Below, one piece after another: positions 46,048-52,748 of a stretch of 64,000 nt of DNA. Origin of the DNA: Flavobacterium azooxidireducens (GTDB taxonomy: Bacteria; Bacteroidota; Bacteroidia; Flavobacteriales; Flavobacteriaceae). The notes beneath the pieces are model-generated. The model did not search any database. It was given only the letters and a program-made list of their open reading frames with translations, and was not told the DNA's origin. Every line of letters starts with the position of its first letter. The first letter of the stretch is position 1. The DNA lies in contig NZ_CP096205.1 of NCBI RefSeq assembly GCF_023195775.1, forward strand, positions 2,606,001-2,670,000, in the 5' to 3' direction. The position numbers and the translations under genes are program-made.

Positions 46048-46920
46048 ATGAAGCTTTTCAAATTATCTATATTGTATTTTATTTTGTTTATTTCTTGTTC
46101 GTCTAAAACGGATTCAGGAGAAAAAATTGCAACTCTTTTTGATTTTCCAAAAGATATAAGCGAAGTTTCAGGCATAACATTCCATAATAATTTGATTTGG
46201 AGTATTCAAGATAGTGGCAACTCGAATGAGATTTATGGTTTTGATGAAACCGGAAAAGTAGTAGAACAAATTGAAGTTCAAAATGCAGAGAATATTGACA
46301 GGGAAGCAATCACTTCAGACAAGCAAGGAAATCTTTACATAGGTGATTTTGGTAATAATGACAACGATAGAAAAGATTTAGTCATTTACAAATTAGCATC
46401 TTCAGACTACAGCGAAGTTTCAGAAAAAATCACTTTTTACTATCCTGAACAAACTGATTTTCCGGCTAAGAAAAAAGAAAAATTATATGATTGTGAAGCC
46501 TTTTTTCTCTATCAAAATGCATTTTATTTATTTACCAAAAACCGAAGCAAAGGTTTTGATGGAACGACATTAATTTATAAAATTCCGGCTGTCGCAGGAA
46601 ATCATCCGGCACAATTTATTGGTAAGTTTAAAACCTGTTCTAATTATAATTCTTGTGTAATTACCGGAGCAGCTATTAGTCCAAATGAAAAGCAAATTGC
46701 ATTATTAGGACATGATCGTGTTTGGTTGATTGAAAATTTTAAAGGTGATGATTTTCTTTCGGGAACTACTATTTCTGAGTTAGAATTGAATCATTACAGC
46801 CAAAAAGAAGGCATTTGTTTTAAAGACAATGAAACACTTTTTATAGCCGATGAGCGAAGCAAAAAAATAGGAGGGAAGCTGTATGAAGTTTCTCTTTCAA
46901 CCTTAAAAAGTTCCAACTAA
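46048..46920 (+). CDS. Beta-propeller-like lipoprotein, unknown function
   Basis: 290 residues. The signal sequence ends in FISC (lipobox), followed by SSKTDSG. The rest shows propeller-like repeats (EVSGITFHNNLIWSIQDSG, DREAITSDKQGNLYIGDFG, DCEAFFLYQNAFYLFTKN), a pattern resembling SdiA-regulated/YjiK-like proteins. It is likely an outer-membrane lipoprotein that binds a ligand or partner. Its 3' end overlaps the convergent PAP2 gene by 18 bp. The function is unknown. Confidence 0.75.
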   Translation: MKLFKLSILYFILFISCSSKTDSGEKIATLFDFPKDISEVSGITFHNNLIWSIQDSGNSNEIYGFDETGKVVEQIEVQNAENIDREAITSDKQGNLYIGDFGNNDNDRKDLVIYKLASSDYSEVSEKITFYYPEQTDFPAKKKEKLYDCEAFFLYQNAFYLFTKNRSKGFDGTTLIYKIPAVAGNHPAQFIGKFKTCSNYNSCVITGAAISPNEKQIALLGHDRVWLIENFKGDDFLSGTTISELELNHYSQKEGICFKDNETLFIADERSKKIGGKLYEVSLSTLKSSN

Positions 46921-47796
46921 TCCCAATTGATTGTGCCCCATTCTCAAATTCCAGGAAATTTTATTTTTTCTTTCTTCGGGATTGAGTTTATATTTATTGT
47001 CTCTTTTTAGATAAGAATCCACACATTCCACAATGGCCACACTCATCACTGTACTTAAAAATACATCGGAAGCCCAGTGTGCTCCTTGCCAAATTCTGGA
47101 TACAGGGGACACCATTCCTAAAGCATAAAAGCCTCCTTTTATCCAAGGACTACTAAATTGTTTAGATAATGCATAACAAGTGGTGACTGATAATGCCGTG
47201 TGTCCCGAAGGGAAAGAACTAAAAGCCGGAGTGCCGTTAAAAGGATCAAAATAATCGTGTCCTAGTCCAGTGCTGGGTCTTGCACGTCCGGCAACTGTTT
47301 TCATAACTTGTTGCAGTAACCCGCTCACACTGGCAGATGTTATCATAAGGACACCGGTGTAGCGAATTTTTTCATTATTTGAGAGTAAACCAACCAAATA
47401 AACACTTCCTGTTAAACCATAATTTACCAATGGTTTTCCAAATCTAAAACCAAATTCACTCACAGAATGTGGAATGTCTTTATCTTGTCTTCTAAAAAAA
47501 TTACTTATTTCTTCATCTGAAAGATATAAAATTCCGGTTCCAACCAACGTTCCGCCAAAATAAGCAAAGTCTTTTTTGTCCCATCGCGTGGGTTGTGCAA
47601 ACGTGTAAAGAAATCCGTTTGCACCATTTCGAGCATCATATTTTAGTTTTTGCCAAATGGTCTCTTTTACAATTGTATCATTTTTAATTTCGCTAAAAAC
47701 AAGTGTGTCGCGTTGAATGGATAAGGTATCCGTTTGGGCATAAATAAAATGTTGACAGGCAAAAAATACAATAAAAAGTTTGATGAATTTATCCAT
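46903..47796 (-). CDS. PAP2-type phosphatase (lipid phosphatase family)
   Basis: 297 residues with a signal peptide and several membrane helices. The three PAP2 motifs are intact: K166 to R173-P174 (KTVAGRARP), PSGH at 196-199, and SR at 233-234 with His240 and Asp244 (SRIWQGAHWASD). It should dephosphorylate a lipid phosphate such as undecaprenyl pyrophosphate, phosphatidate or a lipid A phosphate on the periplasmic side. It starts 15 bp after the stop of the large metallophosphoesterase gene on the same strand, so the two form an operon. Confidence 0.9.
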   Translation of the reverse strand: MDKFIKLFIVFFACQHFIYAQTDTLSIQRDTLVFSEIKNDTIVKETIWQKLKYDARNGANGFLYTFAQPTRWDKKDFAYFGGTLVGTGILYLSDEEISNFFRRQDKDIPHSVSEFGFRFGKPLVNYGLTGSVYLVGLLSNNEKIRYTGVLMITSASVSGLLQQVMKTVAGRARPSTGLGHDYFDPFNGTPAFSSFPSGHTALSVTTCYALSKQFSSPWIKGGFYALGMVSPVSRIWQGAHWASDVFLSTVMSVAIVECVDSYLKRDNKYKLNPEERKNKISWNLRMGHNQLGLVGTF

Positions 47797-47810: not shown

Positions 47811-50800
47811 TTAAAATCCAAATCCTAGTCCAAAGGCAATTCTGTTTCCGTCTTGGCTGTTAAAAAAAGTTAGACGGGCTGTTACTAAATCTAATCCGTT
47901 AAGCCAAATTCCACCACCCACAGATTGATGCCATTTGTTTGAATCTTCTCCATCCAACCAAACTCTTCCATAATCATATCCGCCTAGAATTCCGTAACTC
48001 ATTGGGACAATACTTTTTATTTTGCCAATATTCCAACGTAAATCAGTGCTTTGAAAGAAAGATTGTTTTCCGAGAAAGCGTTCGTTTCTGTAACCTCTCA
48101 AATCATAATCGCCTCCCAAGGTTGCTCCTTGATAGAATTCAAAATTGTTATTCAAAAGCATTTTTCCTTTCAATAACGTTCCGAGTACTAATTTATTGGA
48201 TTTGGTTAATTTATGACTAAATCCTAATTCACTTTCTAAATAAGTAAAATTTCTTTTTGAATCGGATAAATTGGTTTTCCATGTTCCTTGAATCGAAAAT
48301 AGCATTCCAATTGTTGGATTGGCTTCGCGATCATAATTTTTAAAAGCATAGTTGAATGAAACTCCGGCAAATTGCTGGTAGTCAAAAACTTCAGGATTGA
48401 TAGCTCCGGGTTCGTTGATAAAACGATTGGAAGTTCCTTCCACTTCAATGTTTTCAAAGGAAGTTTGAATGGTAACTTCACTTCCAAATCGGCCCACATA
48501 TTTAAGTGAAGGAGCAAATTTAAGAATTTGAATTCGAACACGATTATAATCCATTCCTTCTTCACTGTCAAAATTTTCAGTTTCATTTCCGTAACCAAAA
48601 TAATTGATGCTGAAATTTGGAGTAGTATAACGGGCTTCCATTTCTAAATTCCATTTGCCAATTATTCGGGTAAAACTATTTTTATAACCTAATTCTACAC
48701 CTTCGGTGGCAAAATAATAATTGGCACTCAAATTATGCTTGGCGGTGTAAGGATTGTTAATAAAACCTTGTTTAACATAACTATACGTTCCGCCAATTTT
48801 TACACCATCATCCGGATTAAAACCAATCATAGGTAATAGAAATGTATGATTGTATTTGGGTTTTTTGTAATGGTATTCATTTAGTTCATAATCATCTTTT
48901 AAATGAATTGCCGTGCAGTTTTCAGCATTTACATTGTTTTTCTTTGATTTATAATCGTAGATTTTTACTTTTTTACCGTTTTCAACCACATAATTATCAT
49001 GATTTTGTCCGCCAATTAATCGGATGATGATGTTGTTTTTGGCTTTTCCTTTTACTTCAAATTGATCGTCGTCATCCAAGCCATAAATCCAAATTTCTTT
49101 GGTTTGTTTTTTATTATAGGTTTTCGAAAATTGAAATTCTTCGCCGTCTTTTTTCAATCGAAACCATGAAACTTTTGTATTTCCTTCGGATAAACGTTCA
49201 ATTAGAAATTTGTCTTTTTTATCGGTTCCTGTCAGAATTATTCTTTTTTGAAGTAAATCATAATAACTCAAAGCAAAATTTTCCAATCCTTTTTTTCTGA
49301 ATTTTAGTTTGGTTTTAATTTCGTTTGTTGTTTCATCGTCTTTTATTTCTAAAGGCAATTTGGAAAATGCTTCATCAATCGCTTCATCAGTCAATTCACT
49401 GATGATATAATTTGCCTGTTTTTTCCAATCGTCTTCTGTTGCATTTTTAATAAAAGCCACATCTAAGCTATGTGCCGAAAAGTTGAACCATTTTTCACTT
49501 GGATAATCAGCTTCAAAATTGGTAATATGTCTAACGCCTGGAATGTTGAGTAGTAAACTAATTAAGTTACCATCCACTTTTGCAAAAGCTTGATCACGAT
49601 CTCTTGGAATGGGTTTGTAAATTACTTTGTCACCTTGTTCAAATTCCGACCAACGCCATTGGTCTTGGTGTCTGTCCCAATCGCCAATGAGCATATCAAA
49701 CAAACGAGCTTTGATGTAGGCTTGTTCATCCACTTGGTATTTTTCATCTTTTCGGATGTTGGCCAAAACGTCGTCTGTTCCTAGAATGGCTCGTGGTTTT
49801 CCATAGCTTTCTAAATCGAGGTGTTCGTCTGTTTGACGTTCTTCTACCAAATATAATTTATCGCCAAACGAATCATTAAATTTCCCTAATCGGTTTTGTT
49901 TTGGGATAAAATACAGTTTAGGATTACTGTGATAAATGCCAATTTTATCTGCTAAATTTCCAATGATAAATGGTGTGAAAGGATGTCCGGAAGTATAAAA
50001 ATCATAAATAAATTCTTCTGCATAGGTATCTTGAAATCCAGCCACGGCATTTTGATCTCTAAAAATAGATTGTAAAAAGCGAGGTGCATTTTTCTTTAAG
50101 GCACGCATGACATAATCTTTTCCGTTTTTATCTTCTAATCGAAGCGATTCCGATTGATTTCCACCACCTGAAATAGTAGGGGTTAATCCTCCATAAAGCG
50201 TGTCAAGTTGAACTGATTTGGCTTCAATGGGTAAACCGTAATAGGGTCTGTAATGTTCTCCCCAAAGAAATTTATAAAACTTACTTTTTTGTGTTGATTC
50301 AGTAGAATAAATAGATGCTTGAATAGTTTTTTCGTTGTTTTCGATGAAATTGGTATTTATTAAACCTTCATTTGGACTTGGAAGATAAACTTCATGAATC
50401 TTTTTTAATTCACTTTCTTCTGAGCTGAAATAGGTTAATAAAGCGGATTGATTTTCAAAAACTTCTAATTTACTATATCCAAATCCGCCAAAAGAAAAAT
50501 CGTTTGCTCCAACAGCTTTAGCTGCTTCGCGTTTAGAAGCTGCTCCACTGATTACTTGTTTTATACCATCATTTTCAATGTATTGCAAATTGTGTTCGTG
50601 ACCGGAAACCACTAAAACATTATTCCGGTTTTGAATCATCGGTTTGATGTTGTTGATGAGGTTTCGATACACTTTGTTTTGCAAATCCTGCGGACTGGCT
50701 CCGGTTGTTTTTCGTAAAAGATTGATTAGTGAGCCAATTATGGGTAATGGAATAGTGTTTTTGATTGGATAAAGGTGCTTTTTTGCCGAAAAAACGCCAC

Positions 50801-51539
50801 CATGCGGACCGTGACTCATTAACGGATGGTGAATGGCCAAAATGGTGAATTTATTTTGATTTTTGTTGATTTCACTTTTCAGTTCGTCAAAAAATTCTAA
50901 TCGGGTTCTGATGTCGCAATCGTCATTCATGGTTGGGTGTTTGTCCCAATCTTGTAGAAACCATTCGCTATCTACCACAATCAAACCAATTTGGTCATTT
51001 ATTTTTACGGTTTCGATGGCACACCCTTTTCTGGGTAGAAATGCTTTTTTTTCATTCAAATACGTTGTGACATATTTTTCTTGTTCGTTTAATCCTTTCA
51101 AACCATTATACCAATCGTGATTGCCAGGCATAAAGATGGTCCTCCCTTTAAATTTTTTAGCGATTTCCAATTGAAGGGTTAATTTTTCTTCGGCATCGGC
51201 TCTGGTTGGATCATTTTGCTCGGCCGGCATTCCTTTGGGATAAATATTATCTCCCAAAAACAATAAAGTATTATTTTTATCCGTTGTGGAGACTTGACTT
51301 TCTAAAAATTTTAGTGTTTGTATCGTTTCGGGATTGGTTGTGTTTCCTGCATCGCCAATTAAGAAAAAAGTATGACTTATTTTGGAGCTGTCAATAATTT
51401 CTTGATGGGAAGAAATGGTGTCTTTTTTTCCGGTTTGAATCGAATGTGTTGCACAGGAAAACAAGAAAAAGGAGGGAAGTAAAACCAACCCTTTTTTATA
51501 ATTTGCAATTAGCTTAATGAAAACCCGAAACATTTTCAT
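47811..51539 (-). CDS. Lipoprotein metallophosphoesterase fused to a kinase-like region and outer-membrane beta-barrel
   Basis: 1242 residues. The lipobox is FLFSC (Cys29). Residues 55-370 form a calcineurin-like phosphoesterase with all metal motifs: IGDAGN (61-66), GDN (96-98), GNHD (139-142), HH (237-238) and GHEH (313-316). Residues about 440-760 are a separate domain with MRALKKN (Lys482/483), IGDWDRHQDQW (618-628) and PIPRDRDQAF (643-652). These resemble the lysine, DRH catalytic and metal-binding loops of Fam20/HipA/PI3-kinase-like folds; this is my inference. From about 880 onwards the sequence is a BamA/surface-antigen-like beta-barrel (LGGDYDLRGYRNERFLG, final F). The order is enzyme, kinase-like linker, barrel. 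It is divergent from the HD-PycTM gene and upstream of PAP2. Confidence 0.8.
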   Translation of the reverse strand: MKMFRVFIKLIANYKKGLVLLPSFFLFSCATHSIQTGKKDTISSHQEIIDSSKISHTFFLIGDAGNTTNPETIQTLKFLESQVSTTDKNNTLLFLGDNIYPKGMPAEQNDPTRADAEEKLTLQLEIAKKFKGRTIFMPGNHDWYNGLKGLNEQEKYVTTYLNEKKAFLPRKGCAIETVKINDQIGLIVVDSEWFLQDWDKHPTMNDDCDIRTRLEFFDELKSEINKNQNKFTILAIHHPLMSHGPHGGVFSAKKHLYPIKNTIPLPIIGSLINLLRKTTGASPQDLQNKVYRNLINNIKPMIQNRNNVLVVSGHEHNLQYIENDGIKQVISGAASKREAAKAVGANDFSFGGFGYSKLEVFENQSALLTYFSSEESELKKIHEVYLPSPNEGLINTNFIENNEKTIQASIYSTESTQKSKFYKFLWGEHYRPYYGLPIEAKSVQLDTLYGGLTPTISGGGNQSESLRLEDKNGKDYVMRALKKNAPRFLQSIFRDQNAVAGFQDTYAEEFIYDFYTSGHPFTPFIIGNLADKIGIYHSNPKLYFIPKQNRLGKFNDSFGDKLYLVEERQTDEHLDLESYGKPRAILGTDDVLANIRKDEKYQVDEQAYIKARLFDMLIGDWDRHQDQWRWSEFEQGDKVIYKPIPRDRDQAFAKVDGNLISLLLNIPGVRHITNFEADYPSEKWFNFSAHSLDVAFIKNATEDDWKKQANYIISELTDEAIDEAFSKLPLEIKDDETTNEIKTKLKFRKKGLENFALSYYDLLQKRIILTGTDKKDKFLIERLSEGNTKVSWFRLKKDGEEFQFSKTYNKKQTKEIWIYGLDDDDQFEVKGKAKNNIIIRLIGGQNHDNYVVENGKKVKIYDYKSKKNNVNAENCTAIHLKDDYELNEYHYKKPKYNHTFLLPMIGFNPDDGVKIGGTYSYVKQGFINNPYTAKHNLSANYYFATEGVELGYKNSFTRIIGKWNLEMEARYTTPNFSINYFGYGNETENFDSEEGMDYNRVRIQILKFAPSLKYVGRFGSEVTIQTSFENIEVEGTSNRFINEPGAINPEVFDYQQFAGVSFNYAFKNYDREANPTIGMLFSIQGTWKTNLSDSKRNFTYLESELGFSHKLTKSNKLVLGTLLKGKMLLNNNFEFYQGATLGGDYDLRGYRNERFLGKQSFFQSTDLRWNIGKIKSIVPMSYGILGGYDYGRVWLDGEDSNKWHQSVGGGIWLNGLDLVTARLTFFNSQDGNRIAFGLGFGF

Positions 51540-51566: not shown

Positions 51567-52748
51567 ATGAATTTGATCCAGCATGCGGAACAATATGTGT
51601 CAACTTTGTTAAAAGAGAAGTTGCCTTCTACTTTTGTTTATCATAATTTTAATCATACAGTTGGTGTTGTTCAGGCGATTACAAAAATTGCAAAGTATCA
51701 ACAAGTGAGTGACGAAGATACTAAAAAAATATTGATTGCTGCATGGTTTCATGATACAGGTTATATACATGGAACAGAAAAACATGAGGTTTCGAGTGTA
51801 CAAATTGCTTCTGTTTTTTTGAAGGAACAAAATTGCGATGAAAAGTTCATTTTAGATGTTTCTAATTTGATAATGGCTACTGTTTTTACGCATCAGCCTC
51901 AGAATGAATTAGAAGAAATTATTCGCGATGCCGATTACTTTCATTTTGCGAATGATAATTATTTAGCCATTTGCGAATTTTTGCGTGAAGAATGGCAGAC
52001 TACTTGTAAAAAAAGTTTTACGGATTTGGAATGGTCTAAAGAAAACTTGCAAATGCTTTCGCAAAAGCATCAATTTTATACTCCTTTTGCGTTAACTTTT
52101 TGGCAACCGATTAAGGAAAAGAACATTACTAGAATTGAGAAAAGAATTAAAAAACTCATGAATAATTTTGACCAAAATTCTACTGAAATTGTCAAAAAAC
52201 CAAAAGAAGAAAAACCGGAACGTGGTATTGATACTCTTTTTCGTGTTACACTTAATAATCACACTCGATTGAGTGAAATTGCCGATAGTAAAGCGAATAT
52301 TTTGCTTTCAGTTAATGCAATCATTATTTCAATTGTGTTGTCTGTTTTGATTCCGAAATTAGACAGTCCGAGTAATTCTCATTTAGTTACGCCAACTTTT
52401 GTTTTGGTTATGTTTAGTGTAGTTTCAATTATTTTTGCAATTCTTTCTACGCGACCAAAAGTAACTTCGGGGACATTTACTCAAAAAGACGTGGAAGAGC
52501 GAAAAGTGAATCTTTTGTTTTTTGGTAATTTTTATAAAATGCCATATAAAGACTATGAAAATGCAGTAAATGAAATGATGAAAGACCGCGAATATTTATA
52601 CAATTCGATGATTAAAGATTTGTATTATTTAGGTTTGGTTTTAGAAAGAAAATATCGTTTACTTCGAATAACTTACAACATTTTTATGGTTGGTATTATT
52701 GTTTCGGTGTTGACGTTTGTGATTGCGTTTAAGAACTCTGGGGTTTAG
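51567..52748 (+). CDS. HD-domain protein with Pycsar-type (PycTM) membrane effector domain
   Basis: 393 residues. Residues 1-195 are an HD-type phosphohydrolase domain: FVYHNFNH (His26/His30), WFHDTGYIHG (His62-Asp63) and IRDADYFHF (Asp121/Asp123) give the metal-binding pattern. A charged linker follows. Residues about 220-393 match the PycTM/DUF5706 effector domain: FRVTLNNHTRLSEIADSKAN, then membrane helices at about 249-264 and 276-293, a cytoplasmic loop with GNFYKMPYKDY, and a last helix at 370-388. PycTM is the pore-type effector of Pycsar phage defence, triggered by cCMP or cUMP. No pyrimidine cyclase is within 10 kb, so the signal partner is absent or distant. The HD domain may cleave the nucleotide. 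Confidence 0.82.
   Translation: MNLIQHAEQYVSTLLKEKLPSTFVYHNFNHTVGVVQAITKIAKYQQVSDEDTKKILIAAWFHDTGYIHGTEKHEVSSVQIASVFLKEQNCDEKFILDVSNLIMATVFTHQPQNELEEIIRDADYFHFANDNYLAICEFLREEWQTTCKKSFTDLEWSKENLQMLSQKHQFYTPFALTFWQPIKEKNITRIEKRIKKLMNNFDQNSTEIVKKPKEEKPERGIDTLFRVTLNNHTRLSEIADSKANILLSVNAIIISIVLSVLIPKLDSPSNSHLVTPTFVLVMFSVVSIIFAILSTRPKVTSGTFTQKDVEERKVNLLFFGNFYKMPYKDYENAVNEMMKDREYLYNSMIKDLYYLGLVLERKYRLLRITYNIFMVGIIVSVLTFVIAFKNSGV

What the first reader, a model, noticed from the sequence alone, without database searches (positions are those of the whole stretch)
47811..51539. Single protein joins a phosphoesterase, a kinase-like domain and an outer-membrane barrel
The sequence shows a lipobox, a complete calcineurin-like phosphoesterase, then a separate region with MRALKKN, GDWDRHQDQW and PRDRDQAF, and finally a BamA/surface-antigen-type barrel. 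The middle motifs look like the lysine, DRH catalytic loop and metal-binding acidic loop of Fam20/HipA/PI3-kinase-like enzymes. If so, the protein could both remove and add phosphate at the cell surface, tethered to its own barrel. The PAP2 phosphatase downstream would be a third phosphate enzyme in the same operon. The kinase assignment is inference; the barrel and the esterase are family knowledge.
Basis: partly seen in the sequence, partly recalled or inferred. Interest (0 to 1): 0.75.

Follow-up and report, generated by a model that had tools for sequence, protein, structure and literature searches.

The report
Kinase-fold and phosphatase domains on Omp85 barrel
A common but unstudied bacterial outer-membrane protein carries, next to a phosphatase-type domain, an unrecognised kinase-shaped domain, so it may both add and remove phosphate in the cell envelope; its activity is untested.

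Summary
The 1242-aa ORF is as described: lipobox Cys29, a purple-acid-phosphatase-like domain (PE, ~50-390), an unannotated middle and a 16-strand Omp85 barrel (906-1242). The middle splits into K (403-769) and a beta-rich domain R (770-905). K has no Pfam or NCBIfam model over cut-off, but its AlphaFold model (pLDDT 89.5) matches kinases: CtkA E 3.3e-6, then HipA, RIO2, COQ8A, more weakly Fam20. Profiles align D622 and D647 with CotH D228 and D251 and with CtkA's DRH loop.

A profile census gave 139 matches in 112 of 296 genomes of the phylum: PE-K-R-barrel 82, K-R-barrel 41, K-R 8, K 6, others 2. In two genomes of one genus the modules are three consecutive genes (K-R, PE, barrel). Degenerate copies lose the K or PE site in several residues at once; one lies in the window's own genome.

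Corrections: PE and K probably face the periplasm, not the surface; PAP2 is a local neighbour (1 of 80 loci); activity, donor and substrate are unknown. A PF00149-plus-Omp85 subfamily was published in 2014. My searches of open-licence papers brought up no earlier recognition of its kinase-like domain.

The parts
51453..51539 (-). Signal peptide and lipobox (residues 1-29; ...FLFS-C29-ATHS)
   Evidence: Sequence; Cys in 104 of 107 aligned sequences; no acidic pair at +2..+6 after any lipobox found in the census
50370..51392 (-). PE: purple-acid-phosphatase-like metallophosphoesterase domain (residues 50-390; GDAG, GDNIY, GNHD, HH, GHEH)
   Evidence: Pfam PF00149 E 2e-9; phmmer to purple acid phosphatases 1qfc E 1.4e-4 and 2bq8 E 1.8e-4; full model matches GAP50 3tgh E 6.5e-10, aligned part not printed
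49233..50333 (-). K: protein-kinase-like domain (residues 403-769)
   Evidence: AlphaFold pLDDT 89.5 for 395-905 and Foldseek to kinases; HHalign to CotH with controls; hmmsearch to CtkA E 0.03; weak Fam20C matches
50160..50168 (-). G458-G459-G460, candidate phosphate-binding loop between two strands (inference)
   Evidence: G458 126, G459 127, G460 101 of 138; strands either side in the model
50091..50093 (-). K483, candidate ATP-contacting lysine (inference)
   Evidence: 132 of 138, with 3 gaps; last residue of a strand in the model
49659..49682 (-). Catalytic-loop motif D620-W-D622-R-H624-x-D626-Q627
   Evidence: Counts; D622 aligned with CotH D228 and with the DRH of CtkA GNFDRHNGNW
49584..49604 (-). 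Metal-binding motif R646-D647-R-D649-Q-A-F652
   Evidence: Counts; D647 aligned with CotH D251
48825..49232 (-). R: beta-rich domain of short strands between K and barrel (residues 770-905); no POTRA-like alternation of helices and strands
   Evidence: Secondary structure of both models; an R HMM match follows K in 131 of 139 census matches
47814..48824 (-). Omp85-type 16-strand outer-membrane barrel (residues 906-1242)
   Evidence: NCBIfam Omp85_fam; 16 long strands counted in the model; full model matches TamA 8us3 E 6.2e-10, BamA 4k3c E 6.8e-10 and the mitochondrial SAM complex 7e4h E 1.9e-9, aligned part not printed

Best explanation
The gene encodes an outer-membrane lipoprotein with an Omp85 barrel, whose long N-terminal part lies on the periplasmic face and carries two phosphate-handling domains. 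One is a purple-acid-phosphatase-like domain (PE). The other is a new family (K) of the protein-kinase-like superfamily, nearest in fold to CtkA and HipA, with weaker sequence-profile links to CotH, CtkA and Fam20C. Shown by computation: the fold of K, the placing of its two key Asp by alignment, the modular unity of K, PE and barrel, and joint loss of active-site residues in degenerate copies. Inferred: the side of the membrane; that K transfers a phosphoryl (or nucleotidyl) group to an envelope substrate held at the barrel; that PE removes phosphate from that substrate or from the spent nucleotide; and that the degenerate paralogues act as regulators or scaffolds. The phosphate donor is the weak step, since free ATP is not expected in the periplasm (recalled).
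For: Fold: model pLDDT 89.5, pTM 0.89; 13 PDB matches at E <= 0.001, all from kinase entries, CtkA best. Residues: HHalign K-CotH score 34.4, E 8.6e-4, against 13.9-24.1 for seven controls with K, while the known kinase-fold pair CotH-HipA scores 40.4; CotH D228/D251 placed in 5jd9 by their spacing; the best PDB hit of the profile of 104 K domains is CtkA, E 0.03, DRH on DRH; the only PF06702 Fam20C match in 148 genomes lies in a member of this family, below the cut-off. Unit: three consecutive genes K-R, PE, barrel in L152 and L153. Active sites: of 137 K domains, 13 lost both loop (D622/H624) and metal (D647/D649) residues, 5 loop only, 0 metal only, with 8 changes of the label on the tree and at least 7 forced, while R612, D615 and W628 stay in 136, 137 and 133 of 138. 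PE: 9 of 85 domains have changed ligands, each 3 to 7 of the 8 checked, and none has only one or two.
Against: TM-score to CtkA is only 0.54 (target length) with 10 A rmsd, so it is a remote relative. The CtkA and CotH sequence E-values are marginal, and K versus HipA by profile is no better than controls (score 17.3). No activity, donor or substrate is known, and no ATP source is expected at the site. In 11 of the 16 genomes with a degenerate K no intact K copy was found, so catalysis is not always needed. PE has lost ligands while K is intact in 4 of 107 aligned proteins and in 6 of the 9 census cases, and 57 of 139 matches carry no fused PE, so PE is dispensable.
Confidence: 0.6

Rival explanations
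1. K keeps the kinase fold but is a nucleotide- or metal-binding sensor or scaffold that does not transfer phosphate; PE is the only enzyme.
For: No periplasmic ATP expected (recalled); 18 of 137 K domains are degenerate yet retained; L019 reads GDWNRH with PRDRD and MKK kept.
Against: The four loop and metal residues are all kept in 119 of 137 K domains and are mostly lost together, as expected of an active site; PE is degenerate beside an intact K in several copies.
Confidence: 0.25
2. It is a phosphate-scavenging device: PE frees phosphate from organic compounds and K phosphorylates an imported small molecule, the barrel being the pore.
For: PE resembles purple acid phosphatases; the convergent SdiA-regulated gene (PF06977 over its cut-off; phytase-like PF13449 under its cut-off) has a relative in 62 of 80 loci.
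Against: Omp85 barrels are not known nutrient porins (recalled); 57 of 139 matches carry no fused PE; the PAP2 neighbour was found in 1 of 80 loci.
Confidence: 0.12
3. It is an Omp85 assembly or translocation factor, with PE and K as regulatory or structural attachments.
For: Full model matches TamA and BamA best; Heinz and Lithgow give a role in protein assembly as the conservative default for unknown Omp85 subfamilies.
Against: No POTRA seen in the model; PlpD shows that Omp85 scaffolds can carry a periplasmic enzyme domain (abstract); K-R and K also occur without a fused barrel, in 14 of 139 matches, one of them cut by a contig end.
Confidence: 0.15
4. The N-terminal part is displayed on the cell surface (type Vd-like or by lipoprotein flipping).
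For: Bacteroidota move many lipoproteins to the surface (passages).
Against: No acidic pair after any lipobox found in the census, 0 of 64 full-length proteins, whereas the F. johnsoniae export signal is SDDFE (passages); the patatin domain of PlpD, once thought to be translocated, is periplasmic (abstract).
Confidence: 0.1

Closest known systems
Omp85-metalloprotease ('Metallo') subfamily of Heinz and Lithgow 2014 (PMC4104836; section 10 and passages seen)
   Same: PF00149 domain plus Omp85 barrel, described among the non-POTRA architectures; function unknown. That these are the same proteins is my inference; no sequence identifiers were compared
   Different: The paper reads PF00149 as a metalloprotease; Pfam names it metallophosphoesterase. 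The word kinase does not occur in its main text. Split operon and degenerate paralogues are not in the parts that I saw
CtkA / HipA-like kinases
   Same: Best fold match; GDWDRHxDQW against GNFDRHNGNW
   Different: Not fused to a barrel (recalled); profile-profile score with HipA is at control level
CotH kinases (PF08757)
   Same: Best profile-profile match of the two families compared, in the catalytic half; D228/D251 on D622/D647; IPxDxDxxF pattern
   Different: K has DRH where the aligned CotH sequences have WDDY or FDGF; the N-lobes are not in the alignment; no CotH was among the 50 listed Foldseek rows
Fam20C secretory kinases (PF06702)
   Same: Matches 2 of 104 K domains, best E 6.6e-4; active and dead paralogues in one genome, as Fam20A and Fam20C (recalled)
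   Different: Below Pfam's cut-off; Foldseek Golgi casein kinase only E 5.7e-3
PlpD (patatin-Omp85)
   Same: Enzyme domain joined to an Omp85 barrel, enzyme on the periplasmic side (abstract)
   Different: Patatin instead of PE and K; has one POTRA domain (passage)

Membership tests
Protein-kinase-like superfamily | Two-lobe kinase fold | tested here: met
   high-confidence model; 13 of 13 matches at E <= 0.001 are from kinase entries, but remote (best TM 0.54)
Protein-kinase-like superfamily | Catalytic Asp and metal-binding Asp at equivalent places | tested here: met
   By sequence-profile alignment only; 3D superposition of residues was not possible
Protein-kinase-like superfamily | Phosphotransfer activity | not testable with these tools
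   Needs protein chemistry
CotH (PF08757) | Score over the curated cut-off | tested here: not met
   4 of 104 K domains match, best E 0.026
Fam20C (PF06702) | Score over the curated cut-off | tested here: not met
   2 of 104, best E 6.6e-4; 0 of 148 genomes over the cut-off
HipA_C (PF07804) | Score over the curated cut-off | tested here: not met
   2 of 104, best E 0.19; profile-profile score at control level
Calcineurin-like / purple acid phosphatase | PF00149 over the cut-off and the metal motifs | tested here: met
   38.6 bits against 21.5; motifs in sequence; that these motifs define purple acid phosphatases is recalled
Omp85 superfamily | 16-strand barrel | tested here: met
   16 long strands; TamA/BamA matches
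Omp85 superfamily | Periplasmic POTRA domain | tested here: not met
   R is nearly all short strands; Heinz and Lithgow accept non-POTRA subfamilies

The most novel reading that the evidence does not exclude
A self-contained writer-eraser of phosphate fixed to the inner face of the outer membrane: kinase and phosphatase in one polypeptide (or one operon), working on an envelope lipid, glycan or protein with a donor other than cytosolic ATP, and tuned by catalytically dead paralogues as Fam20A tunes Fam20C (recalled).
Probability: 0.2. Interest if true: 0.88.

Novelty: new variant of a known kind. Interest (0 to 1): 0.64.

Why it matters
The family is in 112 of 296 sampled genomes of the phylum, and its central domain has no model in Pfam or NCBIfam that scores over cut-off. 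A kinase-type active site beside a phosphatase on an outer-membrane barrel turns an orphan Omp85 subfamily into a testable enzyme, and raises the question of how phosphate would be transferred where ATP should be absent. The split operon and the dead paralogues give ready handles.

Tried and rejected
Chance motif: rejected by census and fold. The HDAC6 hits of the first profile are weak (E 0.31) and cover only the DWDxH stretch. Direct search of the middle: no Pfam match at E <= 10 for 395-905; in eight relatives no match to K in Pfam or NCBIfam that I believe. K versus HipA profiles: no signal. The Pfam scan of 104 K domains lists 39 families, several that I take for chance with E-values like those of the kinases (DUF1598 0.0014, EnY2 0.0037; Gp5_trimer_C in 8 members, best 0.086), so the Fam20C and CotH matches there are weak on their own. 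PAP2 as part of the system: dropped (some of the 80 loci are cut short, so neighbour counts are minima). The APH family search was run and not used. PMC10281475 (OMP76) proved to be a TonB-receptor-like barrel (passages). The Fisher test (p 1.6e-14) ignores relatedness; the tree has long-branch warnings. Whether PE-less genomes hold a PE gene far from K was not tested; only the fetched flanks were searched. Column labels run one too high from about residue 491; counts here come.

Rows dropped: L310, cut by a contig end, was left out of the co-loss test (137 of 138). K-R-barrel rows L265 and L303 begin at or near a contig start, so a PE may be missing there. L303 and L310 are near-copies within one genome. 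A4 holds the window and 103 of 138 census K domains (near-copies, short and degenerate rows dropped); one search also left out degenerate and short rows. A2 took 72 and A3 60 of the 80 loci, all selected by the patterns PRDRDQAF or DWDRHxDQ, so motif counts on them are biased. The 107-row set needed a D-x-[DNSE]-R-H pattern and so left out L166. 28 of 30 CotH and 29 of 30 HipA loci were used. The lipobox scan is a crude pattern of my own.
Full report
Observation. Pfam finds the metallophosphoesterase at 58-316 (E 2e-9) and a borderline barrel match at 1095-1210; NCBIfam gives Omp85_fam at E 2.3e-20, under its cut-off. Residues 395-905 alone have no Pfam match at E <= 10. The window lies in a 3.82-Mb single-contig genome; the closest named relatives listed are Flavobacterium. 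A second copy, 43% identical, lies elsewhere in the same genome.

The phosphoesterase is of purple-acid-phosphatase type: GDAG, GDNIY, GNHD, HH and GHEH are in the sequence, phmmer finds 1qfc and 2bq8 at E 1.4e-4 and 1.8e-4, and Foldseek on the full model finds GAP50 (3tgh, E 6.5e-10).

The middle. Relatives that lack one or other neighbour show where the domains end. In 139 profile matches from 112 of 296 genomes of the phylum, HMMs of the separate pieces give PE-K-R-barrel 82, K-R-barrel 41, K-R 8, K 6 (one cut by a contig end), K-barrel 1 and R-barrel 1. K is about residues 403-769. An AlphaFold model of 395-905 with 73 sequences has pLDDT 89.5 and pTM 0.89. Foldseek against the PDB gives 13 matches at E <= 0.001, all from kinase entries: CtkA (best 3.3e-6), HipA, two further bacterial kinase complexes (one named HipS-HipT), RIO2 and COQ8A/ADCK3; the Golgi casein kinase follows at 5.7e-3. 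Of 429 matches 50 are listed; these are kinases or kinase-fold phosphotransferases by their description, or by recall for YihE, Rv3197, MSMEG_1954 and two ribosome entries. The match is remote (TM 0.54 on CtkA, rmsd 10 A).

Which residues. HHalign of intact K domains with 28 CotH domains scores 34.4 (E 8.6e-4), laying GDWDRH on the CotH WD motif and IPRDRDQAF on IPYDYDNSF. Seven controls with K (reversed profiles, PE, barrel, R) score 13.9-24.1, and the kinase-fold pair CotH-HipA scores 40.4. K against HipA scores 17.3, which is control level. In the solved CotH 5jd9 the two aligned Asp are 23 residues apart, as are D228 and D251, whose substitution inactivates CotH (PMC7821199, passages). The profile of 104 K domains finds CtkA first in the PDB (E 0.03), aligning its DWDRH stretch with GNFDRHNGNW. 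PF06702 (Fam20C) has a single match in 148 genomes, inside a member of this family (1272-aa frame, E 4.8e-4 for that genome, under the cut-off). That the aligned Asp are catalytic in CtkA, HipA and Fam20C is recalled.

Signs of an active site. Of 138 K domains, 18 have lost one or more of D622, H624, D647 and D649, not counting L310, which is cut. Of the 137 uncut ones, 13 lost loop and metal residues, 5 loop only and none metal only, while R612, D615 and W628 stay in 136, 137 and 133 of 138. The label needs 8 changes on the K tree, at least 7 by well-supported branches, though several such rows are long branches. The window genome's second copy (L166) is degenerate in both domains (K: H624Q, D647N; PE: D63N, Y100F, N140K, H141S, H316Q). 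Five of 16 genomes with a degenerate K also have an intact one; 11 do not. PE ligands have changed in 9 of 85 census PE domains, each in 3 to 7 of the 8 residues checked; K is degenerate too in three of these and intact in six. Four of 107 proteins of another set have lost 4 to 7 PE ligands with K intact. So each site can be lost without the other.

One unit. In L152 and L153 (two genomes of one genus) K-R, PE and barrel are three consecutive genes on one strand, the first two with a lipobox. In L310 a PE frame lies directly upstream of a K frame that is cut by the contig end. Free K of about 425 aa occurs in five genomes; in the four whose N-termini were printed it begins with a hydrophobic segment.

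Topology. The full-length model (43-1242, 61 sequences, pLDDT 87.4, pTM 0.85) has 16 long barrel strands and no POTRA that I can see; its best matches include TamA, BamA and the mitochondrial SAM complex. My lipobox scan finds one in 64 of 82 full-length and 4 of 41 PE-less barrel proteins, with no acidic pair at +2..+6, whereas the F. johnsoniae surface-export signal is SDDFE (PMC5080379, passages); the TamL study assigns lipoproteins without the signal to the periplasmic side (PMC12045153, passages). PlpD's enzyme domain is periplasmic (PMC11116518, abstract). I therefore place PE and K on the periplasmic face, by inference.

Neighbourhood. Of 80 loci, 71 hold a relative of the divergent HD/PycTM gene somewhere in the fetched stretch, 62 of the SdiA-like gene, 60 of the 787-aa gene and 1 of the PAP2 gene. 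PAP2 starts after a gap of 14 bases on the same strand in the window and may share the transcript, but is not part of the conserved surroundings.

Known work. Heinz and Lithgow (PMC4104836; section 10 read; passages) defined an Omp85 subfamily with PF00149, called metalloprotease there; the word kinase is not in its main text. No listing showed a kinase-like domain in such proteins by title or abstract start; most of the listed papers I did not open, and only open-licence PMC text is covered. Of five plasmid records with K, four annotate it as hypothetical and one not at all.

Verdict. My odds: kinase fold about 0.95; catalysis about 0.5; opposed action with PE on one substrate about 0.2-0.25.

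Noticed in passing
G000:C1:2058127-2061759 (L166:6128-9847): A full-length paralogue in the same genome has changed ligands in the phosphatase domain and changed catalytic residues in K, yet keeps the whole architecture.
   Followed up: partly
window 51567-52748: The divergent neighbour joins an HD domain to a Pycsar-effector-type membrane domain (PF18967) and has a relative in 71 of 80 related loci; role unknown.
   Followed up: no
window 46903-47796: PAP2 phosphatase gene between the finding and the convergent SdiA-like gene; a relative was found in 1 of 80 related loci; its 3' end overlaps that of the convergent gene by 18 bases.
   Followed up: partly
L149 and L150: Clusters of three and two K-R genes in which one copy reads GDWSRR in place of GDWDRH beside copies with GDWDRH.
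   Followed up: partly
L147, L148, L159, L160, L302: A free-standing K of about 425 aa, forming one group on the K tree.
   Followed up: partly
window 48825-49232: Domain R looks like a stack of short strands with an RTX-like GGQNHDNY stretch (resemblance recalled); its fold was not searched on its own.
   Followed up: no
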